DNA from: an uncultured Clostridia bacterium
GTDB taxonomy: Bacteria; Bacillota; Clostridia; UBA1212; UBA1255
DNA: 32,489 nt
Direction of reading: 5' to 3'
NCBI GenBank assembly: GCA_947625435.1
Contig: CANQOI010000027.1
Location: 1-32,489 of the forward strand
In this document: positions 11,179-25,616 of the stretch, in pieces
Position numbering within the stretch: position 1 is the first letter of the stretch
Layout of the letters: every line of letters starts with the position of its first letter
Made by a program: the position numbers and the translations under genes
The notes under the pieces: model-generated
What the model saw: the letters and a program-made list of their open reading frames with translations, nothing else
The model's database searches: none
Told to the model about the DNA's origin: nothing

Positions 11179-11221
11179 GATATCACCCTTCTGTTTTATG
11201 CATGCGCATAAATGCTTATGC

Positions 11222-11497
11222 TTACGCAAGCTGCTTTACCTTGGCCTCTATCTCTTTCAGTTCTTCGGGAGACAAAGCATGGACATATTTAGCTATCTTT
11301 TCTGTAGGAATGCCGTCTTTCAGCATTTCTTCTGCCGTCTGACGGGCGTTTTTCTTTTCGCCTCTCTTTTCTCCTCTTTTTTCTCCTCTCTTTTCGCCTC
11401 TTTTTTCGCCTACCTTTTCGCCTTCCTGCCTTGCTTCGCGCTTTTCGCTTATTATGTGCGTGGCAAGTATTTCTTCATAGCTGTATGATCCCATCAT
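11222..11497 (-). CDS. C-terminal piece of an Rpn/PD-(D/E)XK nuclease-family gene (probably split off)
   Basis: A 91-residue reading frame beginning MMGSYSYEEIL, then a charged run of GEKR units and a C-terminal helix rich in Glu/Lys. The GEKR run is encoded by six 12-bp units. In-frame codons upstream of its ATG, as far back as about 11527, encode ETEVSEIMM, which reads like the continuation of the Rpn family. It therefore looks like the detached tail of the gene at 11494-12099. The ATG is overlapped by that gene's stop and has CGGAGG 12 bases upstream, so it may still be translated. Confidence 0.55.
   Translation of the reverse strand: MMGSYSYEEILATHIISEKREARQEGEKVGEKRGEKRGEKRGEKRGEKKNARQTAEEMLKDGIPTEKIAKYVHALSPEELKEIEAKVKQLA
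11354..11425. repeat. Six 12-bp tandem units in the Rpn-family tail
   Basis: Six consecutive 12-bp units of the form CTTTTCGCCTCT (plus strand), slightly degenerate, encode repeated GEKR/GEKV/GEKK on the minus strand. The unit is in frame, so slippage would change tail length by four residues per unit. Confidence 0.85.
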
Positions 11498-12099
11498 GAT
11501 CTCCGATACCTCCGTTTCCTGCGCTCCCTGTCAAATATCTGTGCAAACAGTATATACTGATTTATTATATCCTCCGTGCCCCGTTCATATATCACCTTCG
11601 CCCGTACCTCGAATCCTATGTCATTCCCGTCAAAGAATTCCCGAGACAAAGACAATACATCCTGCTTGCTGCCCTTGTCGCCCGTATATATCACATACAG
11701 CTCGGGCCTCGGTATAGATACCTTCTTCGTGCTGAAAAGACTCTGCCTTGTATTGTGTATATATTCGCGGTAGCTCTGCGCAAGATACAGAAAAGCGCGT
11801 ATCAGTATGTTCACACTGAAGCTGCTCTGGCATTCCGCCATTATCATGAGCCTGTCGTCAACCGTGAATCCGAGGTCGTTGAAGATATTATTTACCAGCA
11901 CATTGTCAAGTGTTATATTGGTAAGAGATGCCTCCGTCGCCTCTTTGTCCTCGGGGTGGAGTGTCTGATAGAGCTGAAGCAGGTATTTTTTGTCGTGAAA
12001 CAGATTCGAAAATACGCTGTCCTTTACTGTGCGCTTTGCCGTTATCTCGCTCACAGTCCTCATTTCATCCGCATATTCGGATGCCCTATTATCATTCAT
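11494..12099 (-). CDS. Rpn-family recombination-promoting nuclease/putative transposase, N-terminal part
   Basis: A 201-residue protein matching the N-terminal two thirds of Rpn (PD-(D/E)XK nuclease) proteins. It has VKDSVFSNLFHDKKYLLQLY, then NDLGFTVDDRLMIMAECQSS, which carries the nuclease-type D...E-x-Q signature, and RPELYVIYTG. It ends abruptly in an arginine-rich run and a stop, where family members normally continue. The ATG at 12099 has GAGGTGA before it and a good promoter at 12133-12161. Frameshift or deletion near 11500-11535 separates it from the tail at 11222-11497, so the gene is probably a pseudogene or a split gene. Rpn proteins promote RecA-independent recombination. Confidence 0.75.
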   Translation of the reverse strand: MNDNRASEYADEMRTVSEITAKRTVKDSVFSNLFHDKKYLLQLYQTLHPEDKEATEASLTNITLDNVLVNNIFNDLGFTVDDRLMIMAECQSSFSVNILIRAFLYLAQSYREYIHNTRQSLFSTKKVSIPRPELYVIYTGDKGSKQDVLSLSREFFDGNDIGFEVRAKVIYERGTEDIINQYILFAQIFDRERRKRRYRRS

Positions 12100-12132
12100 T
12101 CTGTCACCTCGATTCCGTAAGTTCTTATTTTC

Positions 12133-12161
12133 ATTATACACGAAAACACAATGGCTTACAA
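12133..12161 (-). promoter_or_regulatory. Promoter of the Rpn-family gene
   Basis: On the minus strand TTGTAA (12161-12156), a 17-bp spacer and a consensus TATAAT (12138-12133), 34 bp upstream of the ATG. Confidence 0.7.
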
Positions 12162-12232
12162 ATTGTTTTCGCTGCATGCTCACAGACGGCACTTCATAGC
12201 AAAGACCCGTTCCGCTTCCGCTCCGCTTTGTA

Positions 12233-13573
12233 TCATTGTCCGGATCTTAGCCTGTAGCGCCTGTTTTTATTGGCTCCCTCTGAAATAACAACGCCCGATC
12301 TGACAAGCTCGGACATATAATCGCGCGTACGCGATCTCTTCAGATCTACAAAAGCGGCAATCTCCGATGTTTTGGCATAAGCACGGCACGACAAAAAATC
12401 GATTATCATTTCACGTTTATGTGCGCCCGTATCAGGCGCCCCGGCCGGTTTTATAAGAGCGCCGTCCGCATTTTCACGCATTTTTTTAACTGAAAATGCG
12501 AATGTAACGCGAAGCGGCCCAAAGCTCTCTGTTATGACAGGCTCTTCAAGGCCGTACATTTTGCAGGTCCTCACAATTTCGGGTATGCCGCCGCCCGACT
12601 GTTTTACGGCGTTTATTACATTGAACATTTTCATTATGAGCGCGTTTCTCGGGTCGGACACGCCTCCGCCGGCGGCGTCGCCCGGCATTATCCTGAATGC
12701 CCCGGGATTTGTAAACGTAAAATGTCCGCGTTTGTTTTCTATATTTATGCCGCCCGGCAGATTGTAATCCGCATTCACTATGCAGTTTGCCAAAGCCTCT
12801 CGGAGCGCGCTCCGCAGGCGGGCATTCCCGGTCAGCAAGCCACATGTGCGCACGTAAAAATCATACAGATTCTCGCACACTTCCCGGGAGTCCCTGCAGA
12901 GCGAAAAATATGCATATTGCTCCTTAATATGCGTCCACTTGCCGAACATGAGCAGCCCGGCGGCGGTCGGATATATTTTACCGTCATTGCCTCTGCCCGA
13001 CGCGCCGAGCCTGAACAGGAAATCACCGTCCGAAAGCTCGTGCCATGCGTGCGCCGGACGGCACTCCCTCATGCGCGCCCTGTACCTTTGCACGCACTCA
13101 CCGTCAAGCACGGACATGTCGGTTCCGTCAAGCACCGCCGTATCCTGCGTTTGCGCCGCGGCGTCCCTGAGCATAGCTTCCACATCGCAAGCTGTGCACA
13201 GGCGATCTTCGTCTGCGCTTCTGTAATACGTGCCCGTGTAGGGGTCCTTTCCCACATACACGGGCCTGTCTTTCCGCGCTGCGCGCGGCACGGTCACCGA
13301 GGCGCAGCTCTTGCCGCCTGCATCCGTGCCGCACACGGGACTGTCTGACAAAACCGGCAGAATATTTACGCTCACTGCCGATCCGTCGGAAGCAGCGCTC
13401 CTGACTCTGTCAATAAAGACCTGCATGCCCTCATGCGCGCCTGTCTTATTGCCTTCCGGATCTGCCGGCAGCAACACGCCGCCGTTCGTATTGGCAAAAG
13501 CAGAATACGTTTTCCATATGCTGTCAGGCAGCCCCTCGTGCGCAGACGCAGCCTCTTCCGCGTCGTTCATCAT
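12233..13573 (-). CDS. AlbA/Schlafen-type ATP-binding protein with C-terminal winged helix, shortened N-terminus
   Basis: A 446-residue member of the AlbA_2 / RecG-like ATP-binding protein group, usually annotated as a putative DNA-binding regulator. Visible parts are SAFANTNGGVLL (AlbA_2 core), REALANCIVNADYN plus NPGAFRI (HATPase-type N-box), and a C-terminal winged helix (TSEIAAFVDLKRSRTRDYM). The usual N-terminal ESxxxEFK strand is missing, so the AlbA domain is shortened. The ATG at 13573 overlaps the stop of the small peptide gene upstream (ATGA) and lacks its own ribosome binding site, implying coupling. An in-frame TTG at 13600 is less likely. As last gene of the peptide operon it could be a regulator or immunity factor; that is inference. 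Confidence 0.75.
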   Translation of the reverse strand: MMNDAEEAASAHEGLPDSIWKTYSAFANTNGGVLLPADPEGNKTGAHEGMQVFIDRVRSAASDGSAVSVNILPVLSDSPVCGTDAGGKSCASVTVPRAARKDRPVYVGKDPYTGTYYRSADEDRLCTACDVEAMLRDAAAQTQDTAVLDGTDMSVLDGECVQRYRARMRECRPAHAWHELSDGDFLFRLGASGRGNDGKIYPTAAGLLMFGKWTHIKEQYAYFSLCRDSREVCENLYDFYVRTCGLLTGNARLRSALREALANCIVNADYNLPGGINIENKRGHFTFTNPGAFRIMPGDAAGGGVSDPRNALIMKMFNVINAVKQSGGGIPEIVRTCKMYGLEEPVITESFGPLRVTFAFSVKKMRENADGALIKPAGAPDTGAHKREMIIDFLSCRAYAKTSEIAAFVDLKRSRTRDYMSELVRSGVVISEGANKNRRYRLRSGQ

Positions 13574-13716
13574 ATAATACGTGTCAAACGCGCAAGACAA
13601 CTGTGATTGGAGCAGGCGTTCAGCACCACGGCGTTATCCACCTCAGACTGAGACATTGACTGCATAAAAGGCTTATGCCAATCCTTCATTTTTGTTTCTT
13701 CCGATTTCTTATCCAT
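13570..13716 (-). CDS. Candidate RiPP precursor peptide B (48 residues)
   Basis: Too short for routine gene calling, but well supported. The ATG at 13716 has GGAGGT 8 bases upstream, its start overlaps the stop of the preceding gene by 8 bp, and its TGA overlaps the next ATG. Residues 10-16 read MKDWHKP, the same M-K-x-W-x-K-P with identical spacing as peptide A, and WHKPFM fits the YxxPxL leader motif bound by PqqD-like domains. An acidic/polar stretch follows, then NACSNHSC with cysteines at 35 and 40, and an eight-residue tail LARLTRII. Leader and core boundaries are inferred. The alternative is a misread N-terminus of the AlbA gene, but the frame is different and no AlbA N-terminal signature is present. 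Confidence 0.7.
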   Translation of the reverse strand: MDKKSEETKMKDWHKPFMQSMSQSEVDNAVVLNACSNHSCLARLTRII

Positions 13717-15025
13717 TGAACTTACCTCCGTAGATTTCGAGAGTCTTAATGAGACTCATAAACATTTCCTTGTTGATCGCATATCTGGAGCCCTGCTCCT
13801 TAAGTATGAGCTTCTGTGCGGCAAACTTTTTGATGAGCCTGTACACGGTCGTTTTACTCAGTTTCAGAGTTTCCGTTATCTCATCCACCGTACATGGACG
13901 TTCACGCAGAACATTCAGAACATCCAGGGCTTCCGAGTATGCAAAATACTTAAACTTATCCCCAATTCTGTTCACATCGGAGCTGTCTTCAAAAAGGTCC
14001 CTATAGCCGTATCCTATACATATGACAAAATTATTGTATTTGCCGTAGTACTCGGCATGTCCGGAACAAAAAGCAAGCGGTTCGATCGACACGGTCTGTC
14101 GGCCCGCGCCGCCTGTAGCTATTCTTCTGAAAACATAATTATCTGTGATGCCATCCAGCTTATGTCTGCTCTTGATCTCGGATATCATGCTATTCCGTTC
14201 TTTTTCAAAGTAAGGCCGCATGGACTCAAACTGCCCTTTGTATACTTCAAAATACGACGTGAGAAATTTCACAAGTTCCTTCTTAAGAGTAGATTTCTTC
14301 GGGTCGGCTATCTGATATGTTTCATACATATTTATTATATCCTTCCTCATCGAATCTGAATATTCCGCTCCGTTCATAAAGTAGTAAAATTTCCCCATAT
14401 CCGAGCAAACATATTCTGCCACATTGTGCGTCACAAGTGAATTAATGCTCGCGCATGAAACGATATGTGCGAAAATATCGCGGTCCGTAAGTGTATTGAT
14501 CCTGTCAAAAACATCATGCTCCGTGATATTCTGCGCCGCTATGACGTCATACAGAATACACGATGTAAGAGCATGCGATTCCGTCACTTTTGTGAAAAGA
14601 AGTCTGAGCACACCCCAGCTGCTGTAAACATAATCCCTCAACCTGCAGGATGCCTTCTCCAGAGCAACCTCAAGTTCTGTGCTACACTTGCGCAGGAAGC
14701 CCGTTGTTTTTAAATCCGCCAAAAGGTTCAGAAACAGCAGTGCATCCCTCACTTCCGGCACGCATTTCTTCACATAGAGCTCGTATGTGTGTTCGCCTAT
14801 ACTGCCGGTGTACACATAATCACCGGCCGGCTCGCCATCCGCTGCGGCGTCATTTACCCCGGGAGTGCCGATATTCTCCTCATTCTCAATATCAGCAGCA
14901 ATCGGCACAAACAAATCGTCCGAATCCAATCCATTTACAACCGAATTCAAACTGCTTTTGTGAAACGCCACGCCGTCATCTACATAACCAATGTTCTTAT
15001 CTTTTGTAAACTTCAGAATGTCCAT
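13709..15025 (-). CDS. ArsR-type winged-helix protein with large N-terminal domain (paralogue 2)
   Basis: A 438-residue protein with an unrecognised N-terminal part of about 330 residues and a C-terminal winged helix (ALDVLNVLRERPCTVDEITETLKLSKTTVYRLIKKF, shown here only in part: TVDEITETLKLSKTTVYRL). It shares layout and weak sequence pattern with the proteins at 15242-16057 and 17544-18656. The start is uncertain: AGGGAGG at 15037-15043 is only 2 bases from an ATG at 15034 and 11 from the one at 15025. It lies between the two small peptide genes and overlaps the start of peptide B by 8 bp. It may sense the peptide or control its operon. That is inference from position. Confidence 0.7.
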   Translation of the reverse strand: MDILKFTKDKNIGYVDDGVAFHKSSLNSVVNGLDSDDLFVPIAADIENEENIGTPGVNDAAADGEPAGDYVYTGSIGEHTYELYVKKCVPEVRDALLFLNLLADLKTTGFLRKCSTELEVALEKASCRLRDYVYSSWGVLRLLFTKVTESHALTSCILYDVIAAQNITEHDVFDRINTLTDRDIFAHIVSCASINSLVTHNVAEYVCSDMGKFYYFMNGAEYSDSMRKDIINMYETYQIADPKKSTLKKELVKFLTSYFEVYKGQFESMRPYFEKERNSMISEIKSRHKLDGITDNYVFRRIATGGAGRQTVSIEPLAFCSGHAEYYGKYNNFVICIGYGYRDLFEDSSDVNRIGDKFKYFAYSEALDVLNVLRERPCTVDEITETLKLSKTTVYRLIKKFAAQKLILKEQGSRYAINKEMFMSLIKTLEIYGGKFNG

Positions 15026-15093
15026 AATTGACATTGCCTCCCTTTCCGTAAAATCATTCCGGTGAAATCTCCGATATCCCACCCTGCCGTCAG

Positions 15094-15207
15094 TTAATAT
15101 CCCTCCTGACATATGTCCACAAAGCTCGAGCAGCCCGCGGCGGTTATTATGTCCTCAAGCTCGTCCCTGCCGATGTGCTCTATTTCCGGCTTCTTCCATT
15201 TCTTCAT
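15094..15207 (-). CDS. Candidate RiPP precursor peptide A (37 residues)
   Basis: A tiny gene with an ideal ribosome binding site, GGGAGG 8 bases before the ATG at 15207; an ATG at 15213 in the same frame is only 2 bases away from it. The product starts MKKWKKPEI, so W4-x-x-P7-x-I9 corresponds to the YxxPxL motif of RiPP leaders recognised by PqqD-like domains. A charged helix (RDELEDIITAA) then leads into GCSSFVDIC near the C-terminus, with cysteines at 26 and 33, followed by QEGY. It sits between two ArsR-protein genes in one operon, with a radical SAM/SPASM gene and a PqqD-like gene upstream. No known precursor family is recognised. The expected modification is a thioether at the cysteines, which is inference. 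Confidence 0.75.
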   Translation of the reverse strand: MKKWKKPEIEHIGRDELEDIITAAGCSSFVDICQEGY

Positions 15208-15241
15208 GCTCATATCCTCCCTTCATATATATTTATATATA

Positions 15242-16057
15242 TCAAAAAGGCGCGGAGGCCCCTCCGTTCAGCTCCTTCTGAATTTTGTACAGCCCGTCCG
15301 CGCATATCACCGTCTCATCCTCGCTATACACCCTATTATGTGTAAAGCATACCATTTCCGGCACATATATGTACTTTCTTCGCATATCTCCGAGCTCCGC
15401 CCTTGTATATTCGAAAATAAAAGGCAGCTCCTCACACGATCTGAGATGATCTCTCAGTATCCTGTAATAATAAATGTAAGCCTCGCCGTGCAAATCGTAC
15501 AAAGCCGAAACGGCGTCATATATTCTGGTAAAATATTTCACGAGCATGTCTCTGAACATGTCAAAATCAGTGAACATGAACGAAAGACCGAATTTTGCAT
15601 CGGGAGAGATATCCATAGAATTAAGATATTTCACGGGATCCAGCGCTGTCTCAAATATAAAGCTGTCTATGTCGGCGGCGTGCTCCGGAATATACGGCCT
15701 TATGAAATACATGAGTATCTCCGTTCTTATGCCGTCCATGTCTCCCGACTGTATGTAGCTTCTGAATTCGTCAAATGAATGAAGGCGGAATGCTCTGCTC
15801 CTGAAAACGAGCATCATGACTGTATAATTATAAATATTGTCAACGATATCCGGTATGTGGAAGAGAGGTGAAAGGGCATTGTCATATATGAGTGCGTTCT
15901 TGTATATAGATCTTATATCACTGCGTGACCCGGGCTTAAGCAGGCTAAGTTCTTCGTCCAGCATACTGTCTGCGTAAGGCTTGTGCGCCCTGTCCGTCAC
16001 ATTGAGCACGTCGAACAGTATGCTTCTTCGAATACTTGCAATAGCCCATGAAACCAT
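15242..16057 (-). CDS. Paralogue of the ArsR-type proteins lacking the winged helix (paralogue 1)
   Basis: A 271-residue protein of unknown function. A middle segment around YLNSMDISPDAKFGL and MLVKYFTRIYDAVSALY resembles the N-terminal domains of the proteins at 13709-15025 and 17544-18656, but it ends (GLYKIQKELNGGASAPF) just where the others enter their DNA-binding winged helix. It is the first gene of the peptide operon, downstream of a good promoter. GGGAGG lies 13 bases before the ATG, a rather long spacing. A short GC-rich inverted repeat (15253-15266) followed by five U residues overlaps its stop and could attenuate transcription into peptide A. Without a DNA-binding domain it may be a dominant-negative partner, a peptide receptor or an immunity protein; none is proven. 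Confidence 0.65.
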   Translation of the reverse strand: MVSWAIASIRRSILFDVLNVTDRAHKPYADSMLDEELSLLKPGSRSDIRSIYKNALIYDNALSPLFHIPDIVDNIYNYTVMMLVFRSRAFRLHSFDEFRSYIQSGDMDGIRTEILMYFIRPYIPEHAADIDSFIFETALDPVKYLNSMDISPDAKFGLSFMFTDFDMFRDMLVKYFTRIYDAVSALYDLHGEAYIYYYRILRDHLRSCEELPFIFEYTRAELGDMRRKYIYVPEMVCFTHNRVYSEDETVICADGLYKIQKELNGGASAPF

Positions 16058-16101
16058 ATGAAATTCACGCCTCCCTCACAGTTATTTTATGACATGCGCT
16101 A

Positions 16102-16130
16102 ATATTATCACAACAAAACGCACGAATCAA
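16102..16130 (-). promoter_or_regulatory. Promoter of the peptide operon
   Basis: On the minus strand TTGATT (16130-16125), a 17-bp spacer and TAATAT (16107-16102), 44 bp before the ATG at 16057. It gives the peptide block its own start separate from the enzyme block upstream. Confidence 0.55.
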
Positions 16131-16504
16131 TATATTTTATATTTCATTTATACATAATGTTTTTATTTATTTGGTATTTAACCGTTAATCAGCCCTTTTA
16201 TAGACTCATTTTGTTCGATATATCTCGCATATGATTTCTAAGAATTTATCTGATATGCCCGTATGATCCGGGTACGATTTTCGCATTATAAATTATGCAA
16301 CGTATGTCATGCTAAACAATTCCGCTTTTCGGTTACATCGGAATAACACACGGCACCGATCGGCCCGGCAATGCGCAGGGCTCACCATATATATTGCACC
16401 TTTATGCGTTCCGGCAACGACCATATATCCCGCAAAAGCGGATTTTCACACAAAATAATAGTGCAAAAATCTAAATTGTAAACATATAGTAAATAAAAAG
16501 AATG
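16131..16504. other. AT-rich gap between enzyme block and peptide block
   Basis: Mostly non-coding. It holds a bulged hairpin around 16425-16445 (ATCCCGC-AAAA-GCGGAT). On the minus strand there is a 31-codon frame (16388-16293) with AAAGGTG 8 bases before its ATG and three cysteines, but without the WxxP leader motif of peptides A and B. It is too weak to call as a gene. No clear terminator for the radical SAM gene was found. Confidence 0.5.
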
Positions 16505-17554
16505 CTAATTTTGACATAACTTGCATTCGTTTTTTATAAGCCTCATCGTACTCTGCCTCCTGAATTCGCATTCCCCGTCGCTTCCCGGCATATCGGAGCA
16601 TACAACATCAGCAATCGCGGGGCACCCGCGCCCGCACTTGTTGTGGAGCATACATTTTCCGCACCCGTATATGCCGCCGGCACTTTCCGAAAGGCGCCTC
16701 TCAAGGCGGGCGGAAAGCGCCGATATTTTACGTTCAATATCCTGCCAGTCGATATCGTGTATATTGCCCACGCTGTATCTGTCGTCGTAAAAGTTCTGAC
16801 ACGGCTGAAAAGACCCGCCGGACTTTATGCACGGCGTATAAACGGGCTCCGGCGGCATGAGGCCGCATATAGACGTGGGGAGCGGTATCGTAAGACCTTT
16901 TATTCCGTACTCGCGGTACATGTCGCGCACCTTAACAACGATCTTAGCCCTGTCAGCGACAGGCAGCTCCATTTCACCCCAGTTGGCGGCGGCATTCCCG
17001 TAGGGCACCGCGAAAGCGAACGCGGGACGGCCTCCCAACACGTCGTGCACAAAGCGGCCGTATTCTGAAACGTATTCCGCATTTTTTCTGTTTATGACCA
17101 TTTTGTACACAGGCTTGTTATAAAAGCGCCTCCCGCGCATATTGCTCATGACGCGTTCAAAATTGCCTTCGCCGCGCATGCTCGAATTCGCCGTCTCATT
17201 GGGCCCGTCCAGGCTCACCTGTACAAAGAAATGAGGATCGCGCTCCGCGAGCTCATAGAAAAGGGCGTTGTCCACAGTGCCGTTCGTAATAAAATTCACG
17301 GTCATATCCTTTTCCGAGCACAGGCGGGACAGGGCCCTCAATATATCATTTATCTCAGTGTGCAGGAGCGGCTCCCCGCCCGAAATGCTCACCGAATTTA
17401 CGTTGTACCTTTCTTCCGTATCGCGAATGAAACCCATCAGTACGTCTGCCTCAAGCTCTGTGCGGTGAGTGTTCAGACCCGATGAATTATAGCAGTCACG
17501 GCAGTTCAGATTGCACTTATTTGTTATCTCGATGTACGCACTCTTAAGCTTCAT
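16505..17554 (-). CDS. Radical SAM/SPASM peptide maturase-like enzyme
   Basis: A 349-residue radical SAM enzyme. CNLNCRDC (C14, C18, C21) is the CxxxCxxC motif that binds the catalytic 4Fe-4S cluster, and SISGGEPLLH is the SAM-binding GGEP segment. The C-terminus is a SPASM domain for auxiliary clusters: the exact CX2CX5CX3C pattern is at C298, C301, C307, C311, with further cysteines at 242, 252, 319 and 329. SPASM enzymes commonly modify ribosomal peptides, for example by making thioether (sactipeptide or ranthipeptide) links. It overlaps the ArsR-type gene by 11 bp and is the last gene of the enzyme block. The candidate substrates are peptides A and B. Anaerobic sulfatase-maturase or PqqE-like roles are alternatives. 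Confidence 0.87.
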   Translation of the reverse strand: MKLKSAYIEITNKCNLNCRDCYNSSGLNTHRTELEADVLMGFIRDTEERYNVNSVSISGGEPLLHTEINDILRALSRLCSEKDMTVNFITNGTVDNALFYELAERDPHFFVQVSLDGPNETANSSMRGEGNFERVMSNMRGRRFYNKPVYKMVINRKNAEYVSEYGRFVHDVLGGRPAFAFAVPYGNAAANWGEMELPVADRAKIVVKVRDMYREYGIKGLTIPLPTSICGLMPPEPVYTPCIKSGGSFQPCQNFYDDRYSVGNIHDIDWQDIERKISALSARLERRLSESAGGIYGCGKCMLHNKCGRGCPAIADVVCSDMPGSDGECEFRRQSTMRLIKNECKLCQN

Positions 17555-18656
17555 CGTCCTCTACAAATCTGCGCAGCATGTTCGACGCATATATAAACTG
17601 CTTTTTATTTATTCTGTAATACGTTCTCTTGCCTTCTATCCTCTTCAGAACGAATCCCGAATTGCCGAGTATCTCCATATGGTGAGTGAGGGACGACATG
17701 GGAACGCCCAATATCTTACTGAGCTCGCCGTTATAGCATTCCTTATCGTGAAGCACTTCTATTATCTGAGCGCGCGTGCTGTCCGTGAAGGCCTTGAATA
17801 TATCCCTTATCTTTTCTGTCCCGTCTGTCGCAGAATTTTCCTCGAACGCGGGCATATATCCCACGCCGAAGGTGTAATACGTGCTCCTCATCGTGTCTAT
17901 GCGCAGGATGCGGCACGGCGTGAACATGAGTACGGCCACTCTCGCCTCGCTCGTGGGAGGCGCGGACTGCTGCACTGATATCTGTGTGATGGCATTATTC
18001 CTCTTGCGCTCCGTCTCGTAGGCTTCCGCCGCGCTGTCCACCGTACCGTCAACTATATAATTCTCAAATTCCTCCTTAAGTGCGTCGTATTCCTCCTTAA
18101 GGAGCCCGTATTCGTGTGAAAATTCCCTGTACATGTTCACGATATACGTCTTAAGGTCCGATATCACATCGTCCGGGTTCTGCACAAATGACATTATCTC
18201 CCAGCGCGCGTCAGTGGTCGCGTTAAGGCCGTTCATGTAGCTCATGAACACGCTCCTGTTTTCTATTATATCCTCGTAAAATTTATCGTTGAAATTATTG
18301 TAAAGGTCGTTGAAACGCAGTGCGCCGTACATGAGCTTGCGCGCAGGCATATTCTCTATCGCCTTTACTATGTCTTCTCCCGAAGCGTACGTCTCGAGAT
18401 CCGGCCTGAAAAGCCAGTCGAAAAGGTTCATGTTCCTTTCCGGCTTTTTGACAAAGAACATACCGAGTCCCGAATTCCACCTCTTGTTTGCCAGCGACAG
18501 CCTGTAATATGCATCCGATATCTTCTCGTCCGGCGTGAAACCCTCGTTCGGGCATATGTCCTTGTACTTATCGGCCTCCTGCAGCGTACTCAGCAATGAG
18601 AAAAATTCGATCATCATATCGTTACGTTCTTCTAAAACATATACACACTTTGACAT
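17544..18656 (-). CDS. ArsR-type winged-helix protein with large N-terminal domain (paralogue 3)
   Basis: A 370-residue protein with about 280 residues of unrecognised N-terminal sequence and a clear ArsR-like winged helix at the C-terminus (FKAFTDSTRAQIIEVL, then GVPMSSLTHHMEIL and a YYRINKKQF wing). Its N-terminal MNGLNATTDARWEI and DLKTYIVNMYREF stretches echo the two paralogues in the neighbouring operon. The ATG at 18656 is chosen because AAGGAG lies 9 bases upstream, whereas the longer frame to 18698 has no site. It overlaps the radical SAM gene by 11 bp. A regulator of the peptide and enzyme operons is the natural guess. A ligand could be the mature peptide. Confidence 0.75.
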   Translation of the reverse strand: MSKCVYVLEERNDMMIEFFSLLSTLQEADKYKDICPNEGFTPDEKISDAYYRLSLANKRWNSGLGMFFVKKPERNMNLFDWLFRPDLETYASGEDIVKAIENMPARKLMYGALRFNDLYNNFNDKFYEDIIENRSVFMSYMNGLNATTDARWEIMSFVQNPDDVISDLKTYIVNMYREFSHEYGLLKEEYDALKEEFENYIVDGTVDSAAEAYETERKRNNAITQISVQQSAPPTSEARVAVLMFTPCRILRIDTMRSTYYTFGVGYMPAFEENSATDGTEKIRDIFKAFTDSTRAQIIEVLHDKECYNGELSKILGVPMSSLTHHMEILGNSGFVLKRIEGKRTYYRINKKQFIYASNMLRRFVEDDEA

Positions 18657-18715
18657 ACCGACAACTCCTTTATACATATTTTTTAGTACTCTATACATAG
18701 CTCTGTACCGTCATT

Positions 18716-20860
18716 CTAATATGTTTTCGAATTCAAGTCAAATACTATTTTCAAATTTTCGTCCTCATCATACGTGATTCTGTATACAGTTGACATTTCG
18801 CCGTTTTGAATGGCGAACAGTCTCCCCGAGATATACATATATTCATATTTTTTTATATGATCTTTTTCGGCAGTTTTGAACGATACCTTATATTCCGCTC
18901 CGCCGTTTTGCCCAAGCCGTATATTGTCCGTCTTTTCATGCATTTCGAGCCTGAGCCCCGTTTTATTTTCGCCCGAGCGTATTATGCCGCATATCATCCT
19001 TATGCGCTTCTCCCACGGAAGCTCGTCGTCTATATAAAGCGTTCCGGCGCGCACCGTGTTGTCATACGGCCTGCAATAAATGAGCAGGACCTCCGTGCAC
19101 CAGTCGCCGCGGCACCTGTACTTACGCCCGTTCATTCTGCGCAGGGTTATCATGAATTCATTCGATCCCGGCACGCTCACGCGCCCCGAAACCTCAACCT
19201 CCGTGCCCGTAAATCTCATTTCGGTGCTGCCGCATCCGCATTTGCATGCGAGCGTTTCCCCGCGCCTCAGTTCCTTATATTTCCCCGCTTGAAATTCCGC
19301 CTGTTTTACGCGCCACCTTCGCGACATATAATATGCGTCTCTCAGCTTTATGAGCGCGGCTCCGTTCATTTTCATTTTAAAAGGGCTCATAAGGCACGAC
19401 CTTACGTCTATGGGAAGCTCATACATCTTTTCGCATATGTCCTCTCTTTTCTTTATCATGTCGCGGAGATCCTCTATGCCTCCGAGAAAAGGGGCGGGAG
19501 CGAATATTTTACACGTGTAGTCGAGCGCGAGATACAGATAGAAGCTTATGTCGTACCGGTACGCCAGCTCTGAAATGTATTCTTTTGAAATTCCCGAAAG
19601 CTCCCGCGAGAGCAGCGCTATGTCGAGGTAATTCCTGAATTTGAGCTGCAAAAATATATTCGGATCTTCTTCATATGTCATATTCGCGCACCCGAAGTCA
19701 TCCGCGGCCGTCGTATACAGCTGGCACACGTATATATCGGCATCCGACATGGCGTAGAATTCATAGCCGTCCGCGTTCATCATGCGTCTTCTCGAAAGTA
19801 TCTCGTCCGTGTGATCTTCCGTTATGTAGAGTGCGGTGTGAAGCTCGCACGTGACGCTCGGGGCGCTCAGTGCCGTATACGGAGTAAGGTGCGTGGGATA
19901 TTCTGTGAGCGGTATTTCTTCCGTGTGGAGTCCCTGCGCGTCCTTCTGTGCAAATCCCAGCTCCAGCATTATACTGTGCGCCCTTTGTATGCTGCCGGGA
20001 TGTACGAGTATATCTATGTCGTCGCACTCTCTTAAAATATCGTTCTTATATGCTATGTGCGATATCGTGATCCCCTTGTATACGGCATATATTATGTTTT
20101 CCTTTTCAAAGGCGGCCGTTATCCTGCGGCTCCATTCCAGGCGCTGCCTTGCCGCCGCCAGATTGCGCGCCTTTGCGAGCTTGAACATTTTGTTGAATCT
20201 TCCGCACGCCTCCGAAAACATAGGCGATATGACATTCACCACTCTGTGATTTACGAGCATAGAGTAGAAGTCCCTCGTATACACAAAGCTCTCGTCGGGC
20301 GGCTGTATATCGCCCGTCACGTACTCCTTCGCCTTCTGCACCATATAATCCTGTGCTTTATAAACATATTCTTTGATGTCGTCGGGAGCCATGTCATATA
20401 TCTGTACATTACAGCTGCTGCTGTAGGCCGCATTCGGGTCCTGCGTGTCTGTGTAGATCTTGTTCACTTTTCGTGAATACTCCACTATTTTCATGTCGTG
20501 CTCCGAGGGCTCCCCGAATTTAAGCTGCTTTCCCCATTTGTTGAAAGCCTCCGTGACCTTCCCTATGCAGAATGCCTTTTCTATCAGCTCCGAAGCTACC
20601 GCATTATCGCCCTTTGTAACGTACACGGTCTCACCGTTTTCATCCTTCTCGGTGTCTATTATGCGGTGCACCAGCAGTCTCGCTTTACTGTCTATGCATA
20701 TGACTATGTCCCCTATGCTGTAGCCGTCTCTTATATCGAGGCGCACATTGTCGCCCGCCACAAGAAGAGGTATCATGCTGTAGCCTCCCACGGGCAGTAT
20801 GCCGCCCGAGCGTTTCAGCTTCATGAGAGTAAGTGTCTTAAGTAAGCTTCTGCTGTCCAT
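18716..20860 (-). CDS. S26-type peptidase / nucleotidyltransferase fusion with unknown C-terminal domain
   Basis: A 714-residue three-part protein. Residues 1-110 resemble S24/S26 signal-peptidase-like proteases: LPVGGYSMIPLL (Ser28), HRI (His65) and TKGDN (Asp85), the Ser-His-Asp set of the SipW/ER type, with no membrane helix. Residues about 190-500 match the NTP_transf_5 nucleotidyltransferases, with YKGITISHIAY and ECDDIDILVHP as the KG and DxD parts. The last 180 or so residues are beta-rich with a CKCGCG cysteine cluster and are unrecognised. Stand-alone relatives of the second domain occur in lasso peptide clusters. The protease could trim the leader, which is inference. The start at 20860 overlaps the kinase-like gene by 40 bp; an ATG at 20824 (ATGA overlap) is possible. 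Confidence 0.78.
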   Translation of the reverse strand: MDSRSLLKTLTLMKLKRSGGILPVGGYSMIPLLVAGDNVRLDIRDGYSIGDIVICIDSKARLLVHRIIDTEKDENGETVYVTKGDNAVASELIEKAFCIGKVTEAFNKWGKQLKFGEPSEHDMKIVEYSRKVNKIYTDTQDPNAAYSSSCNVQIYDMAPDDIKEYVYKAQDYMVQKAKEYVTGDIQPPDESFVYTRDFYSMLVNHRVVNVISPMFSEACGRFNKMFKLAKARNLAAARQRLEWSRRITAAFEKENIIYAVYKGITISHIAYKNDILRECDDIDILVHPGSIQRAHSIMLELGFAQKDAQGLHTEEIPLTEYPTHLTPYTALSAPSVTCELHTALYITEDHTDEILSRRRMMNADGYEFYAMSDADIYVCQLYTTAADDFGCANMTYEEDPNIFLQLKFRNYLDIALLSRELSGISKEYISELAYRYDISFYLYLALDYTCKIFAPAPFLGGIEDLRDMIKKREDICEKMYELPIDVRSCLMSPFKMKMNGAALIKLRDAYYMSRRWRVKQAEFQAGKYKELRRGETLACKCGCGSTEMRFTGTEVEVSGRVSVPGSNEFMITLRRMNGRKYRCRGDWCTEVLLIYCRPYDNTVRAGTLYIDDELPWEKRIRMICGIIRSGENKTGLRLEMHEKTDNIRLGQNGGAEYKVSFKTAEKDHIKKYEYMYISGRLFAIQNGEMSTVYRITYDEDENLKIVFDLNSKTY

Positions 20861-21750
20861 AGATCCGAATACTCCGTTTCATAAGTTTTCTCCGCTATAT
20901 GTGAAATGACCCTATAATATTCCATTATGCTCTCCGTTTCCCCGCATGCGTTTGCATCTGCTCCTCGCGCGGGAGTGAGCCTGCTCTTTATGAGCCGCGT
21001 GAAAGCGTCTCTTGTGCCGAGTCTGCGCAGATAGGGATCGTCGCTTCCGTATCCGTTTATAAAAACGGCGGCCGCCGTTTCGTACGTGCAGTCGTCCGTA
21101 CCCGTGACCTGATCCGCTTTTTCTTTTATGAGATACCTTTCGCATGCGCCGGAAAGCACACGCTCGGAACCGTTCAGGGCATTTTCCCCAAGCGTATCAC
21201 GGAGCACACGGGCGCCTCCCTCCCTCAGTAAAATGTCCTTATCTGCCGTCAATACACGCATATCCCGGCTTGAAATGTATATTTCATCGTCGGTGATCAG
21301 GTCGTACCCGCGCATATACATGAATGCGGCAAGCGTAGATTTGCCCGAATGCGTGGGCGCGAGCATGAGCACGGCTCTTCCGTTTTTCGCGACCGCCGCT
21401 CCGTGAAGCGATATAAGCCCTTCCTTAGGCTCGGCGGTAAGATACATGTGATTCTCCGTTATCTGTAAAATCTCCGCTGCGCTTCCTTCTTTAAGCTCGC
21501 AGCTCCGCACTGTCTTTTTCCGCGTATTTTCTTCTGCGGCGAAGCAGCACTGCACCGTGCCTGTCCCTTTAATGTAACGCACATACGGTATGCTTCCGGA
21601 TCCCGGTACCGATCCCGGTTCCGATTCCGGCTCCGACTCTGTCTGCTCGCACTTGTATACCGCGCCGTATGCCTCCAGCAGCGCGGCATCGTCCGATATG
21701 AGTGCGAAGTCATATTTCTGTCTTATGCGCCTATACAGCAGTGCTTTCAT
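20821..21750 (-). CDS. HPr-kinase-like P-loop ATPase of a peptide cluster
   Basis: A 309-residue protein with one P-loop, LAPTHSGKST (about 130-139), followed by LITDDEIYI (DD at 154-155), the core of the HPr kinase C-terminal-like family. Related proteins in lasso peptide clusters (PadeK type) phosphorylate a residue of the precursor; they are not the carbohydrate regulator HPrK. A low-complexity Ser/Glu/Pro/Gly stretch lies at residues 37-53. The start overlaps the PqqD-like gene by 20 bp, and the stop overlaps the peptidase/nucleotidyltransferase gene. Whether it modifies peptides A and B is unknown. Peptide A has serines at 27-28 and a C-terminal tyrosine as possible sites. Confidence 0.78.
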   Translation of the reverse strand: MKALLYRRIRQKYDFALISDDAALLEAYGAVYKCEQTESEPESEPGSVPGSGSIPYVRYIKGTGTVQCCFAAEENTRKKTVRSCELKEGSAAEILQITENHMYLTAEPKEGLISLHGAAVAKNGRAVLMLAPTHSGKSTLAAFMYMRGYDLITDDEIYISSRDMRVLTADKDILLREGGARVLRDTLGENALNGSERVLSGACERYLIKEKADQVTGTDDCTYETAAAVFINGYGSDDPYLRRLGTRDAFTRLIKSRLTPARGADANACGETESIMEYYRVISHIAEKTYETEYSDLWTAEAYLRHLLS

Positions 21751-22015
21751 TTTTTAAGAGTATATTGTTTGCCTCGGCTTCTCTGACAAAAGCAGCTACG
21801 TCCTTCTCGACCGTTTCTCTTTCCGCATCATACACTTCAAGAAGCCTGTTTATAACATCCTCAACTGTCATAGGTGTCCTGAACAGATTTATTATGTCAA
21901 GCGATATATCATCAAGTATATGAGTGTTTTCCGTTTCGGGATCATAGAGTACCGTGCCTTCGCCTTCTCCCAGAGGCATTTCCTGCATTTTTGTGTTAAA
22001 TATGTATTTATCCAT
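21731..22015 (-). CDS. PqqD-like RiPP recognition element protein
   Basis: A 94-residue protein of the PqqD family, a small winged-helix-like domain that binds leader peptides and presents them to modifying enzymes. The features seen are the DPETENTHILDDISLDIINLF segment (typical PqqD 'N-x-T-x-x-L-x..A-x-x-I' pattern, here with LDDISLDII) and the VEDVINRLLEVYDAE helix. It is the first gene of the enzyme block, with a moderate AGGAAAGAGAG site before the ATG. The leader motif WxxPx(I/M) in peptides A and B is what this domain would be expected to bind. No separate strong promoter was found in the short gap after the surface-protein terminator, so readthrough may drive the block. Confidence 0.85.
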   Translation of the reverse strand: MDKYIFNTKMQEMPLGEGEGTVLYDPETENTHILDDISLDIINLFRTPMTVEDVINRLLEVYDAERETVEKDVAAFVREAEANNILLKNESTAV

Positions 22016-22054
22016 TATACAACTTCTCTCTTTCCTTTAGCCCTCGCCTTATAT

Positions 22055-22092
22055 AAAAAGCAGCCCCGGGAAGTTGCTTCCGAAGGGCTGCT
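22055..22092 (-). terminator. Intrinsic terminator of the cohesin-domain surface protein
   Basis: On the minus strand AGCAGCCC and GGGCTGCT pair around an inner GGAAG/CTTCC stem, followed by a TTTTT run (plus-strand A-run 22055-22059). It lies 40 bp upstream of the PqqD-like gene. Between this and the stop at 22161 are several AACGAT/ATCGTT inverted repeats. Confidence 0.85.
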
Positions 22093-22160
22093 CTTGTCAT
22101 GCTCTGATCATGAATCGTTGATCACGTGTCGTTAATAACGATTGTTACAAACGATCGTTA

Positions 22161-25100
22161 TCACGATTCTGTTCTTTTTTTGTAGTATACAGCTACTACA
22201 GCTACAGCTGCTGCAAGAAGAACTGCAGCTGCTATCCACATTCCTACGTCACCTGTGGACGGATTACCCGGATTGCTCGGATTATCAGGATTGCTCGGAT
22301 TATCCGGTTTGTTCGGATCATCAGGCTGAGTAGGCTCACCCTCTGAAGGAAGCTTTGTGCCGGCCTTTGTCCTTGTATCCGTTGTTCCGCAGTTATGGTC
22401 GCATACGGCAGTCTCTGTTCCGTCGTTTTCTGTCGTTGCGTCATTGTTGTACACGTAGTTCGTGAATGAATGTCCGAGTGCAGGTATCTCTTCGGTATAC
22501 GTCTCATTGCATCTTGTGCACTTGAATGTCTTTGTTCCTGCTTCCGTACATGTTGCATCCTTTGTTACAGTGCCGTTGTCCCAGCTGTGTCCGAGTGCGT
22601 CAACGCTCTTTGTCTGCTTATGATCAGCATCATTGCCGCATACTCTCTCATCTGTTCCCGCTTCTGTACATGTAGGATCCTTTATGCGTTTCCACTCGCC
22701 CCATGCATGGTCCTTTGCGGGTATCGACTCTTTCTTTGTAGCTTTACATATGTCGCATGTGTATGTTATCTCGCCTGCTTCCTCACATGTAGCTGCCTTT
22801 GTCTCTACTCCGCCGTTCCACTCGTGAGCTCCGTAATAGGTTCTTCCGCAAACAGAGCATGTATGCTTATGCTCGTTATCGTCAGAATTCTCCCAAGGTC
22901 CGAAGTTGTGGTCGCACTCAATGTCTTTAATTCTCACATAGCCGTTATTTGCAGCTATATCATCTGTTATAACAGTGAATGCTCCGGTTTCGTTGTTGTA
23001 ACTCTGTACCTCTTTGATTGTTATGGTTATATCCGTATCGCCTATGGCTCTCGTATCATCAACGATCTTGAATGTAAGCTTCGTGAGAACGCCGCTCTCA
23101 GTACGGTTCTGTATAGCTGCCCATGTGTGCGGGTACGGATACTGCTTGATCGTCTGTCCGAGTGTCAGTGCTCCGAGGAGTCCCATATCTTCACATTTAA
23201 CAAGCTCGAGCTTGCTCTGATCCCAGTTGATTCTGAGGTTGAAGCCGCTCATTCCGGGGTTATTGAGAAGTGATATCTCTACTACCACTTCGGAACCGAT
23301 CGTGCCCTCTGTCGAGCTCACTTTAAACTGAGGCTCTTCGGGTCCCACCAGCTTCTTTATTTCAAATGGTACTTTCTCAGCGCCTGCAACAGGAGTATAT
23401 CCGTCGTTTGCAAGTATTATCGCATAGTACTTTCCGGGCTTGAGAGCTCCGTTTGCGTCGATCTCTCCGCTTCTTTCGGGATTGGTCTTTATGTTATCCT
23501 TGTCTGCGGGGATAGTTACGCTCGTATGATCCTTGAGATACCACCAATAGATGGACTTAGCTCTGCCGTTGTTCGGATCGGTCTCTTCGCCTTCTTTATA
23601 GATTCCTACCCAGTCGGCGTCACCGAACTTACCTGTAGCTGTAACAGTTACGTTATTTTCTCTGTCAACAGTTACGTTTAATTCAGGCTTTGCCGGCTCC
23701 TCGGGCTCCTCGGAAGCGTTATCATATGTGTCGCCCGCATCTTCGTATGTGGATGCCGTGCCTACTGTGAGCTTGGCAACCCAGAACAGCTCGTGCGTGC
23801 CGTCTTCGAATTCCGCATAAAGTCTCACTATCTGTGTTCCGTCGGTAACCGGTACGGGGATATCAAATCTCTGTCCGTATTCAGCGTTAAAGGTCTTTGC
23901 AGCAGCAACAACTCTGTCTTCGGTAGCTGTCATCCAAGCATCGGATGTGACCACCTTTCCTCCGCCTACGGAGTACGAGAACTTAACTACCTTAAGATCG
24001 GTCGCTACCCAGCCGCGGAATGTAACACTCTGATATCCTGCCGCAACTGTAGGAGTTTCTTGATTTTCCTTCTTCCCGCCTACGAGAATACCGCTTTCGT
24101 TATTGGGTCTTACTTCATCATAGCTTGTGTGGATCACATATTCTTCAGGCAGTGTGAAATCTACCTCAGGTCCCATCTGAGGTTCGGGAAGCTTTGTGAA
24201 TTTAATATTGTCGATAGCCATAGATTCAGCACGAGCACCAAATGCAAAAGATGACTGCGTGGAGATGAGAGCGTTCTGAACAGTCTCGAGAACTTCTCCG
24301 TTGGCGTCAGTTATCTTGGCATCAAGATAATATCTTTCATTGAACTTTAAACTCGGCGACATACCGGGATTGCTGTAAAGAACCTTCGCAAATGCAACGC
24401 CGTCACAGTAGAATGTAATCGTTCCATTATTGTCGTCGGTAAGTCTCCAAGTGTGAGTTACACCCGACACATAAAGTCCCGAGAACTCGTGGCCGATAGC
24501 CTGGAGCTGGCCGTCTGCGCCTACTGCCTTAACAAATATTTCTATCCTGTCCCCCGGTCTGAAAGAGAAGCCCACGCCGCTTTCTCCGGTCGTACTGTTC
24601 TGACTGTCAGGACGTACTGTATCATTTTCGTAATACGGATTTCTGTACTCTCCGCCAAATCTGTAACCGAAACCGAGGAAATTTGCACCGCTGCTTCCGT
24701 TTGTAAGATCAACAGAAATATCACTCGTGCCCTTCCATCTGTTATCATATTTAAGTTCAAGAAAAGCACCGGTCGCATATGCGTACTTATTGCCCGCCGC
24801 TGCATTTACTTCAAACGTTCCACCCGCTAACAGAGGAGTCCATTTCTGTCTGAACGGATTCGTTACCTGGCCGTCCGTCTTATACGGAGTGTTCAGGTTA
24901 AAACCTTCTTCTTCATTACTGAAATCATATGAATATTCGTCAATGGAATCCTTAGCGTTCGGAACCTTTTCTTCTCTTTCCGGAAGCGGAATTGATTCGA
25001 GTGTATACTCCTTTACATATTCCGCATCGTATTCGTTAACGTCGGCTGCCGACTTAAAGAATCCGATATACGCTATGCGGAACTCACCGGCAGGAACAGG

Positions 25101-25556
25101 AAACCGTATGGACTTTATTGTCTCACTTGCTACCAAAGGAGATTCCGTCGGAATATCATATGTCTCAAGATGCCATTCATTATCATGAACATAATTTGGT
25201 TGATCAATATAGCGTCCAGTTGTCGGCACAAAACCCGATACATTGGTACCTATATAAATATGAGCGCCGCCGGCATCTACATTCACTTCAGAACCTGCAT
25301 ATTTGATTGCCAAAGTGCCGTATGTTGTCGGACTGACATCATCAACATCGATACTTATCCATGTATCTCCGCCAGTGGCCGTTATGACTGCGTACGAGCC
25401 GTCTTCGGCATAATCTGCTGTCGAATCATTGCAATGAATGTCAGCTTCGCCCATTTTATACACGTGAGTGTCGTCAACTGCGGCGAATGCGGCAAATCCG
25501 GCAAAGCTCGTTACGATCATAGCAAAGACAACTAACAATGAAACGTACCTTTTCAT
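22161..25556 (-). CDS. Large sortase-type surface protein with cohesin-like domain
   Basis: A 1131-residue exported, wall-anchored protein. It has a signal peptide (MKRYVSLLVVFAMIV start, cut near AFA-AV), beta-rich carbohydrate-binding-like modules in the first 600 residues, and an Ig-like module at about 630-735 (DWVGIYKEG...LKPGKYY). A cohesin-like module follows at about 739-875 (VSSTEGTIGSEVVVEIS, LLNNPGMSGFNLRINWD). Next come about 150 residues of CxxC-bearing repeats (CSVCG, CDICK, CTRCN), a Pro/Asn/Asp-rich spacer and an NPSTG anchor with a hydrophobic helix and KKR tail. Cohesins bind dockerins in cellulosome-like assemblies. No dockerin is seen in the window. A GGAGG site and a TTGACT/TATAAT promoter lie upstream. 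Its ends are nearly identical to those of the protein at 27891-29888. Confidence 0.85.
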   Translation of the reverse strand: MKRYVSLLVVFAMIVTSFAGFAAFAAVDDTHVYKMGEADIHCNDSTADYAEDGSYAVITATGGDTWISIDVDDVSPTTYGTLAIKYAGSEVNVDAGGAHIYIGTNVSGFVPTTGRYIDQPNYVHDNEWHLETYDIPTESPLVASETIKSIRFPVPAGEFRIAYIGFFKSAADVNEYDAEYVKEYTLESIPLPEREEKVPNAKDSIDEYSYDFSNEEEGFNLNTPYKTDGQVTNPFRQKWTPLLAGGTFEVNAAAGNKYAYATGAFLELKYDNRWKGTSDISVDLTNGSSGANFLGFGYRFGGEYRNPYYENDTVRPDSQNSTTGESGVGFSFRPGDRIEIFVKAVGADGQLQAIGHEFSGLYVSGVTHTWRLTDDNNGTITFYCDGVAFAKVLYSNPGMSPSLKFNERYYLDAKITDANGEVLETVQNALISTQSSFAFGARAESMAIDNIKFTKLPEPQMGPEVDFTLPEEYVIHTSYDEVRPNNESGILVGGKKENQETPTVAAGYQSVTFRGWVATDLKVVKFSYSVGGGKVVTSDAWMTATEDRVVAAAKTFNAEYGQRFDIPVPVTDGTQIVRLYAEFEDGTHELFWVAKLTVGTASTYEDAGDTYDNASEEPEEPAKPELNVTVDRENNVTVTATGKFGDADWVGIYKEGEETDPNNGRAKSIYWWYLKDHTSVTIPADKDNIKTNPERSGEIDANGALKPGKYYAIILANDGYTPVAGAEKVPFEIKKLVGPEEPQFKVSSTEGTIGSEVVVEISLLNNPGMSGFNLRINWDQSKLELVKCEDMGLLGALTLGQTIKQYPYPHTWAAIQNRTESGVLTKLTFKIVDDTRAIGDTDITITIKEVQSYNNETGAFTVITDDIAANNGYVRIKDIECDHNFGPWENSDDNEHKHTCSVCGRTYYGAHEWNGGVETKAATCEEAGEITYTCDICKATKKESIPAKDHAWGEWKRIKDPTCTEAGTDERVCGNDADHKQTKSVDALGHSWDNGTVTKDATCTEAGTKTFKCTRCNETYTEEIPALGHSFTNYVYNNDATTENDGTETAVCDHNCGTTDTRTKAGTKLPSEGEPTQPDDPNKPDNPSNPDNPSNPGNPSTGDVGMWIAAAVLLAAAVAVVAVYYKKRTES

Positions 25557-25616
25557 AAAATTACCTCCATCAAATATTTATCATAATTTAATAATTTATG
25601 ATATTTAGTGAAAGCA

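What the first reader, a model, noticed from the sequence alone, without database searches (positions are those of the whole stretch)
12233..22015. Candidate undescribed RiPP system in two adjacent operons
Five enzyme-block genes (PqqD-like, HPr-kinase-like, S26 peptidase/nucleotidyltransferase fusion, ArsR-type, radical SAM/SPASM) lie upstream of a promoter-bearing block with two tiny cysteine-pair peptides. Seen directly: motifs, overlaps, order. Known: PqqD-like domains bind leaders, SPASM enzymes modify peptides, and HPrK-like and NTP_transf_5 proteins occur in lasso clusters. Inferred: they act together. The mix of radical SAM with lasso-type tailoring genes, without lasso cyclase or B2 protease, does not match a system I recognise.
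Basis: partly seen in the sequence, partly recalled or inferred. Interest (0 to 1): 0.88.

Follow-up and report, generated by a model that had tools for sequence, protein, structure and literature searches.

The report
Radical-SAM peptide system with paired regulators
These gut bacteria carry a gene set that appears to make small chemically modified peptides, each encoded directly next to its own regulator-like gene; it combines the tool kit of a recently described phosphorylated-peptide family with an extra radical enzyme, and may make signalling molecules.

Summary
On the minus strand lie PqqD-like (RRE), HprK-like kinase, S26 signal-peptidase/nucleotidyltransferase fusion, ArsR-type regulator and radical SAM/SPASM genes. 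A second operon follows, with its own promoter, encoding peptide A (15094-15213) and peptide B (13570-13716). The enzyme cassette occurs in all five genomes of the genus (one truncated), and both peptides in all four whose contigs reach them. Blind profile searches found further precursors in other families, including four unlinked loci in one genome; I collected 23 in all. In every one the leader Trp stands exactly 23 residues before an invariant Ser/Thr, where the core begins. 22 of 23 lie directly downstream of one regulator family, the other directly upstream. Within the order, precursors occur only in genomes with this radical SAM enzyme (7 of 9 versus 0 of 22).

The core (SpI-like leader peptidase, RRE, HprK kinase, NTP transferase, [Y/W]xxP leader, Ser near the core start) matches 'linear polyphosphorylated peptides' (LPP; Popov et al. 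2026). It differs by the radical SAM enzyme, Cys-containing cores, a different leader and the regulator-precursor pairs: a new variant of a known kind. Chemistry and function are inferred; a signalling role is plausible but unproven. The gene at 12233-13600 is not part of it.

The parts
21731..22015 (-). PqqD-like RRE protein (94 aa), predicted to bind the WxxP leader
   Evidence: Pfam PF05402 E 2e-13; present in all five genus genomes
20821..21750 (-). HprK-like kinase (309 aa), predicted to phosphorylate the core Ser/Thr
   Evidence: HprK_rel_A E 1.8e-12, below its curated cut-off; His, P-loop Lys and Asp-Asp conserved in all 13 homologues aligned
18716..20860 (-). S26 (archaeal/SipW-type signal peptidase I) fused to NTP_transf_5 (714 aa): predicted leader peptidase plus nucleotidyl/glycosyl-type tailoring enzyme
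   Evidence: TIGR02228 E 1.3e-9, below cut-off; PF14907 E 1.3e-24; Ser28, His65 and KGD invariant; nearest PDB sequence SEC11A
17544..18698 (-). ArsR-type regulator (384 aa): helical N-terminal domain plus winged HTH
   Evidence: HTH_5 E 1.6e-8; model pLDDT 79 with ArsR C-terminus; conserved in five genomes
16505..17554 (-). Radical SAM/SPASM maturase (349 aa)
   Evidence: PF04055 E 9.5e-18; CX3CX2C, CX9C ending in GX4C, CX2CX5CX3C and a final Cys seen directly; no NCBIfam equivalog reached its cut-off among the 25 shown
16102..16130 (-). Promoter of the second operon: TTGATT-17 bp-TAATAT
   Evidence: Sequence and its equivalents in G001-G003
15242..16057 (-). p271: paralogue of the regulator N-terminal domain without HTH; paired with peptide A
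   Evidence: hhalign against the regulator family E 6.8e-6, prob 85%; single-sequence HMM hit weak, E 0.0015; similar helix order in the model
15094..15213 (-). Peptide A precursor, MSMKKWKKPEIEHIGRDELEDIITAAG|CSSFVDICQEGY (| = proposed cleavage)
13709..15112 (-). p467: regulator-family protein with C-terminal winged HTH; paired with peptide B (its start may lie further downstream)
   Evidence: hhalign against the ArsR protein E 8e-11; regulator HMM
13570..13716 (-). Peptide B precursor, MDKKSEETKMKDWHKPFMQSMSQSEVDNAVVLNA|CSNHSCLARLTRII (| = proposed cleavage)

Best explanation
This is a RiPP system related to linear polyphosphorylated peptides (LPP), extended by a radical SAM/SPASM enzyme. 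The PqqD-like RRE grips the WxKP motif of the peptide A and B leaders and presents the region 23 residues downstream. There the HprK-like kinase phosphorylates the invariant Ser/Thr, the NTP_transf_5 domain may add a group to the phosphate, and the radical SAM enzyme modifies the core, probably using its Cys. The soluble S26 domain then removes the leader at [A/L/I/S/T]-x-[A/G]|[C/W/S]-[S/T], giving a core of about 12-25 residues. Each precursor is encoded with its own member of one regulator family (helical domain with or without an ArsR-type winged HTH), which most likely recognises the cognate precursor or product and controls its expression. Shown here: gene content, synteny, precursor family, fixed W-to-S/T register, pairing, co-occurrence, conserved catalytic residues. 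Shown by others for LPP: leader peptidase, RRE and kinase roles. Inferred: all chemistry in this system, the exact cleavage site (possibly off by one), the regulator's ligand.
For: Five-gene cassette in all five genomes of the genus (the radical SAM gene runs off the contig in G004), at 34-62% identity; both precursors in all four genomes whose contigs reach them. Precursor profiles searched without reference to other genes gave strong hits with a regulator-family gene directly upstream in 8 of 8 new cases: G016 x4, G022, G023, G003 B, G123 second. Order level: precursors in 7 of 9 radical SAM-positive and 0 of 22 negative genomes (hypergeometric 1.4e-5, ignoring shared ancestry). W to S/T distance exactly 23 in 23 of 23 precursors. 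Compact one-operon version regulator-precursor-PqqD-rSAM-HprK-S26 in G041. -1 residue Ala/Gly in all 18 precursors tabulated. HprK and S26 catalytic residues invariant. LPP experiments: LppS S29/H68/D93 needed for RRE-dependent cleavage; S3 phosphorylated by LppK (PMC13381572). PsmN adds hexose to phosphorylated Ser in pseudomycoidin (PMC9266682).
Against: No product, transcript or binding datum exists. The leader also resembles the double-glycine type (ELxxIxxG[A/G]) that C39 peptidases cut, though several members have Asn or Ser at -2. G022/G023 have Thr in place of Ser and no kinase directly beside the radical SAM gene; LppK did not phosphorylate an S3T variant. One G016 core and the L072, L074 and L076 cores have a single Cys, so the radical SAM target is unclear. 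p271 has no HTH, so 'regulator' cannot hold for it as such. Part of the precursor set was found by looking next to regulators, which inflates the 22/23 figure; only the eight blind cases are independent.
Confidence: 0.72

Rival explanations
1. A more specific reading of function: the peptides are signalling molecules and the paired proteins are their receptors. Mature peptide is exported and re-imported, or retained, binds the helical domain of its cognate ArsR-type protein and changes transcription, like Rgg/SHP but with an unrelated receptor and a modified pheromone.
For: One regulator-family gene per precursor, with precursor starts from -17 to +64 bp of the regulator's end. G016 has four unlinked regulator-precursor pairs served by one enzyme cassette; the pair loci hold no recurrent immunity or export genes. 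Rgg/SHP is a precedent for regulator-peptide adjacency linked to radical SAM peptides (PMC13361665).
Against: No exporter or importer tied to the system in the window; p271 lacks the HTH; the helical domain has no assigned fold; regulators could simply control precursor expression.
Confidence: 0.4
2. The products are antimicrobial peptides (bacteriocin-like) whose expression is controlled by the adjacent regulators; p271-like proteins may give self-protection.
For: Short Cys-containing cores with variable C-termini; radical SAM peptides of this general type are often antibacterial; nearest PDB sequence of the radical SAM is SkfB of the sporulation killing factor; in L072 two ABC transporter genes precede the regulator-precursor pair.
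Against: No dedicated exporter or immunity gene conserved with the cassette or the pairs; multiple unlinked pairs are unusual for a bacteriocin.
Confidence: 0.3
3. The two small ORFs are chance and the cassette modifies something else.
For: Small ORFs are common by chance in this window (157 of 30 aa or more overlap 9000-26000).
Against: Conserved in four genomes, homologous to each other, profile hits in other families at E 1e-6 to 1e-18, fixed 23-residue register, co-occurrence with the enzyme.
Confidence: 0.02

Closest known systems
Linear polyphosphorylated peptides (LPP), Paenibacillus alginolyticus lpp cluster (Popov et al., Nat Commun 2026, PMC13381572)
   Same: SpI-like archaeal/SipW-type leader peptidase, discrete RRE, HprK-like kinase, NTP transferase; [Y/W]xxP leader motif; invariant Ser near the core start; no lasso cyclase needed
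   Different: Radical SAM/SPASM enzyme conserved here (the term does not occur in the paper); WxKP leader without YxxPxVLxHQxIxFETxxS; W-to-Ser spacing 23, against 18 from LPP numbering; short Cys-containing cores; no MsbA-like transporter in the locus; peptidase fused to NTP transferase; precursor-regulator pairs, some unlinked to the enzymes; Clostridia, where the LPP work centred on Bacilli
Paeninodin-like lasso peptides with PadeK/PsmK kinase and PsmN
   Same: WxxP leader bound by a discrete RRE, HprK-like kinase, nucleotidyltransferase-type protein
   Different: No lasso cyclase or B2 peptidase; radical SAM enzyme present; conserved Ser at the core start, not the C-terminus
Streptococcal RaS-RiPPs with Rgg/SHP
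   Same: Radical SAM RiPP genes associated with a peptide-regulator pair
   Different: Regulator is ArsR-type, not RRNPP/TPR; here the paired peptide itself has the RRE leader and is the likely enzyme substrate
SynChlorMet cassette (ScmC/ScmD/ScmE, NCBIfam)
   Same: Combination of HprK-like, PqqD-like and radical SAM/SPASM proteins; ScmE is the best NCBIfam match of the radical SAM
   Different: All matches far below curated cut-offs; S26 peptidase and regulator-precursor pairs define the present system

Membership tests
LPP (linear polyphosphorylated peptides) | SpI-like archaeal-type signal peptidase with catalytic Ser/His/Asp | tested here: met
   TIGR02228 E 1.3e-9, though below cut-off; Ser, His and KGD invariant in 14 homologues; position-by-position match to LppS not tested
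LPP (linear polyphosphorylated peptides) | Discrete RRE, HprK-like kinase and NTP transferase in the same cluster | tested here: met
   here the NTP transferase is fused to the peptidase
LPP (linear polyphosphorylated peptides) | Precursor consensus YxxPxVLxHQxIxFETxxS | tested here: not met
   0 of 23 precursors have YxxP in the leader, FET or HQxI; 21 of 23 have WxxP
LPP (linear polyphosphorylated peptides) | MsbA-like transporter in the cluster | tested here: not met
   No Pfam hit to an ABC exporter among the eight proteins of 12233-22015
LPP (linear polyphosphorylated peptides) | Polyphosphorylated, otherwise linear product | not testable with these tools
   Needs expression and mass spectrometry; a radical SAM enzyme makes a further modification likely
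Lasso peptides | Asn-synthetase-like cyclase and transglutaminase-type B2 peptidase | tested here: not met
   Pfam scan of the cluster proteins shows neither
Radical SAM/SPASM peptide maturases | CX3CX2C motif plus SPASM-type auxiliary cluster cysteines | tested here: met
   PF04055; conserved Cys positions in the alignment; distant PDB relatives SkfB and 5wgg
Sacti-/ranthipeptides | Cys thioether to alpha, beta or gamma carbon | not testable with these tools
   Sequence cannot show the bond; no NCBIfam equivalog reached among those shown (PapB 70.9 bits against a cut-off of 340)
SynChlorMet cassette | ScmC, ScmD and ScmE equivalogs above cut-off | tested here: not met
   ScmE 89.1 against 400, ScmC 19.6 against 125, ScmD 22.7 against 100 bits
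Rgg/SHP (RRNPP) quorum sensing | TPR-type RRNPP regulator | tested here: inconclusive
   C-terminal HTH is ArsR-type by sequence and model; the helical domain alone was not searched

The most novel reading that the evidence does not exclude
A previously undescribed bacterial signalling system in which several ArsR-type receptors, scattered over the genome, are each encoded with their own peptide pheromone, and one shared RRE/kinase/radical SAM/signal-peptidase cassette matures all of these pheromones into phosphorylated, radical-modified peptides.
Probability: 0.33. Interest if true: 0.87.

Novelty: new variant of a known kind. Interest (0 to 1): 0.66.

Why it matters
It links two enzyme sets not seen together in the literature I could search: the LPP/lasso phosphorylation kit with a SipW-like leader peptidase, and a radical SAM/SPASM maturase. 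It gives a clear precursor family with a strict W-to-Ser/Thr ruler that makes kinase and peptidase sites directly testable. The regulator-precursor pairs, including unlinked ones, suggest a biological role in gene control for a class of peptides whose function is unknown (LPP authors state the role is unknown).

Tried and rejected
First candidates for the 'tiny peptides' in the gap between radical SAM and p271 (16293-16424, 43 aa; 16065-16130, 21 aa) have no counterpart in relatives and were dropped. The full S26-NTP fusion was found only in this genus among the genomes searched, so it is a poor anchor for distant relatives. A conserved element upstream of PqqD in three relatives is 6S RNA, a neighbour and not part of the system. 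PHROGs gave nothing useful. Structure search of p271 (mean pLDDT 66) gave no PDB match and the regulator list was filled by its HTH domain, so the helical domain's fold is open, not shown to be new. Pfam and NCBIfam have no family for the precursors. G020 has a divergent radical SAM cluster but no precursor hit; G004's contig ends inside the radical SAM gene. Close relatives of G041 and G123 gave no further precursors. Relationship to SynChlorMet considered and rejected on scores. One search was a malformed notebook entry and a malformed submission; neither carries results.

Full report
What was checked. The window is one whole 32,489-base contig of a 2.03 Mb genome. On the minus strand a five-gene block runs from 22015 to 16505: PqqD-like, HprK-like, a fusion of an S26 signal peptidase with an NTP_transf_5 nucleotidyltransferase, an ArsR-HTH protein and a radical SAM/SPASM protein. 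A second block follows with two proteins of 271 and 467 aa and two small ORFs: peptide A (39 aa, 15094-15213) and peptide B (48 aa, 13570-13716), both with GGAGG ribosome-binding sites. A promoter-like TTGATT-17-TAATAT stands at 16130-16102 and a similar pair occurs in the same place in three relatives.

Conservation in the genus. All five genomes of the genus carry PqqD-HprK-S26/NT-ArsR-radical SAM in this order (the radical SAM gene is cut by the contig end in G004), and in those whose contigs extend far enough p271 and p467 follow. Peptide A is present in four genomes (15 invariant positions). Peptide B is present in four too, one on a separate contig but still directly after p467. A and B are homologous (hhalign E 9e-12). 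The AlbA/RecG-like gene at 12233-13600 has no counterpart in the relatives and is excluded.

The proteins between the peptides. p467 is homologous to the ArsR protein over about 280 residues (E 8e-11). p271 aligns with the wider regulator family over 164 columns (E 6.8e-6, probability 85%), though the family HMM scores it weakly on its own (E 0.0015). I read it as a regulator-family protein that has lost, or never had, the HTH. AlphaFold models (pLDDT 66 and 79) show a similar order of helices followed by a small beta element; only the ArsR-type HTH of the regulator finds PDB matches.

A wider precursor family. Related clusters in other Clostridia and a second cluster in the same genome on contig 13 showed peptides with the same leader beside long ArsR-type genes. 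In G041 the whole set is one operon: regulator, precursor, PqqD, radical SAM, HprK, S26. A profile of these peptides was then searched without regard to neighbours in 391 genomes of the class and 31 of the order. New strong hits were one in G003, one in G123, one in G022, one in G023 and four in G016, on four contigs other than the one with its enzymes. All eight lie directly downstream of a regulator-family gene. In total 23 precursors were collected; 22 follow and one (G057) precedes such a gene. Because several were found by looking next to regulators, only the eight blind cases are independent support for the pairing.

Co-occurrence. In the order, the radical SAM profile (E <= 1e-30) hits 9 of 31 genomes. 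Precursors at E < 1e-5 occur in 7 of these 9 and in none of the other 22. The two exceptions are G004, whose contig ends inside the radical SAM gene, and G020, whose radical SAM is divergent. The hypergeometric probability is 1.4e-5; it ignores shared ancestry, since five of the nine are one genus. The system is rare: 9 of 391 genomes in the class sample carry the radical SAM family at E <= 1e-35.

Anatomy of the precursors. All 23 have a leader Trp (21 as WxxP) and a Ser or Thr exactly 23 residues after it. The residue before the [C/W/S]-[S/T] pair is Ala or Gly in all 18 tabulated and in the five later ones, with A, L, I, S or T mostly two further back, as signal peptidase I prefers (established knowledge). 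The S26 domain has no obvious N-terminal membrane helix and keeps the Ser and His of the archaeal/SipW type and the KGD motif. The HprK-like proteins keep the His, P-loop Lys and Asp-Asp found essential in lasso kinases. Cores carry two Cys in 18 cases, one in four and three in one, so the Cys pattern is looser than the Ser/Thr position.

Comparison with the known. The closest described family is LPP (PMC13381572): SpI-like leader peptidase, discrete RRE, HprK-like kinase, NTP transferase and MsbA-like transporter, with a YxxP leader. In LPP, LppS needs S29, H68 and D93 and the RRE for cleavage, and LppK phosphorylates Ser3 of the core. By analogy, the fixed Ser/Thr here is the most likely kinase site and the S26 domain the leader peptidase. 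PsmN, a nucleotidyltransferase-type enzyme, puts hexoses on phosphorylated Ser in pseudomycoidin (PMC9266682). The present system differs in the conserved radical SAM/SPASM enzyme, the leader sequence, the W-to-Ser spacing (23 against 18 from LPP numbering), the Cys-containing short cores, the absence of an exporter in the locus and the regulator pairing. It therefore shares a working principle with LPP but fails parts of the LPP definition. Library limits apply: only open-licence papers were searchable.

How it probably works. RRE binding of WxxP, phosphorylation at the fixed Ser/Thr, radical SAM modification of the core, removal of the leader by the S26 domain. These steps are inferred. A detail that fits but does not prove the kinase role: G022 and G023, sister genomes whose radical SAM cluster has no kinase directly beside it, are the only ones with Thr in place of Ser. 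The pairing of every precursor with its own regulator-family protein, with four unlinked pairs in G016, suggests that each protein recognises its own peptide. Signalling, self-regulated antimicrobial production, or a chaperone-like role of the helical domain all remain open; I rate signalling first, at about 0.4.

Noticed in passing
L018 (G000:C13), about 8448-15095: Second, related cluster in the same genome: regulator plus precursor (MKKQTGNKKEQTWSKPKVKTVSAQELKAKISAAACSVYYEEEPCLFNRR), HprK, S26-PqqD fusion, radical SAM, NTP_transf_5, an apparent acyl carrier protein and an apparent FkbH-like protein, suggesting acyl/glyceryl-type tailoring (last two named from sequence by eye).
   Followed up: partly
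L020, L021, L022, L060, L061: HprK - small PqqD-like protein - S26 (or S26-NTP_transf_5) cassettes without radical SAM and without a recognisable precursor nearby, in the same family of bacteria; possibly an LPP-like or cell-envelope system.
   Followed up: no
L072:14380-19297: Two ABC transporter genes directly upstream of a regulator-precursor pair on the same strand; a candidate exporter for this peptide family.
   Followed up: no
L014:10399-10592, L016:7108-7302, L017:1124-1325: 6S RNA lies next to the PqqD gene in three relatives, so the cassette sits at a fixed chromosomal neighbour there but not in the window genome.
   Followed up: yes
22161-25556 and 27891-29888: Two homologous large surface-type proteins (signal peptide, repeated HxC-rich modules, C-terminal membrane helix) flank the upstream side; 40-66% identical in parts.
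   Followed up: no
11222-12192: Two minus-strand ORFs that together resemble a transposase/nuclease-type (Rpn-like) gene, with a GEKR-type tandem repeat in the downstream ORF; possibly one gene split by a frameshift.
   Followed up: no
12233-13600 and 25696-27324: Two Schlafen AlbA/RecG-HATPase-like proteins flank the region; the first has its predicted TTG start inside peptide B.
   Followed up: no
L216:542-1409 (G057): In the one case with the precursor upstream of the regulator, the gene before it looks like a NusG/LoaP-type antiterminator (by eye), a class known to control biosynthetic clusters.
   Followed up: no
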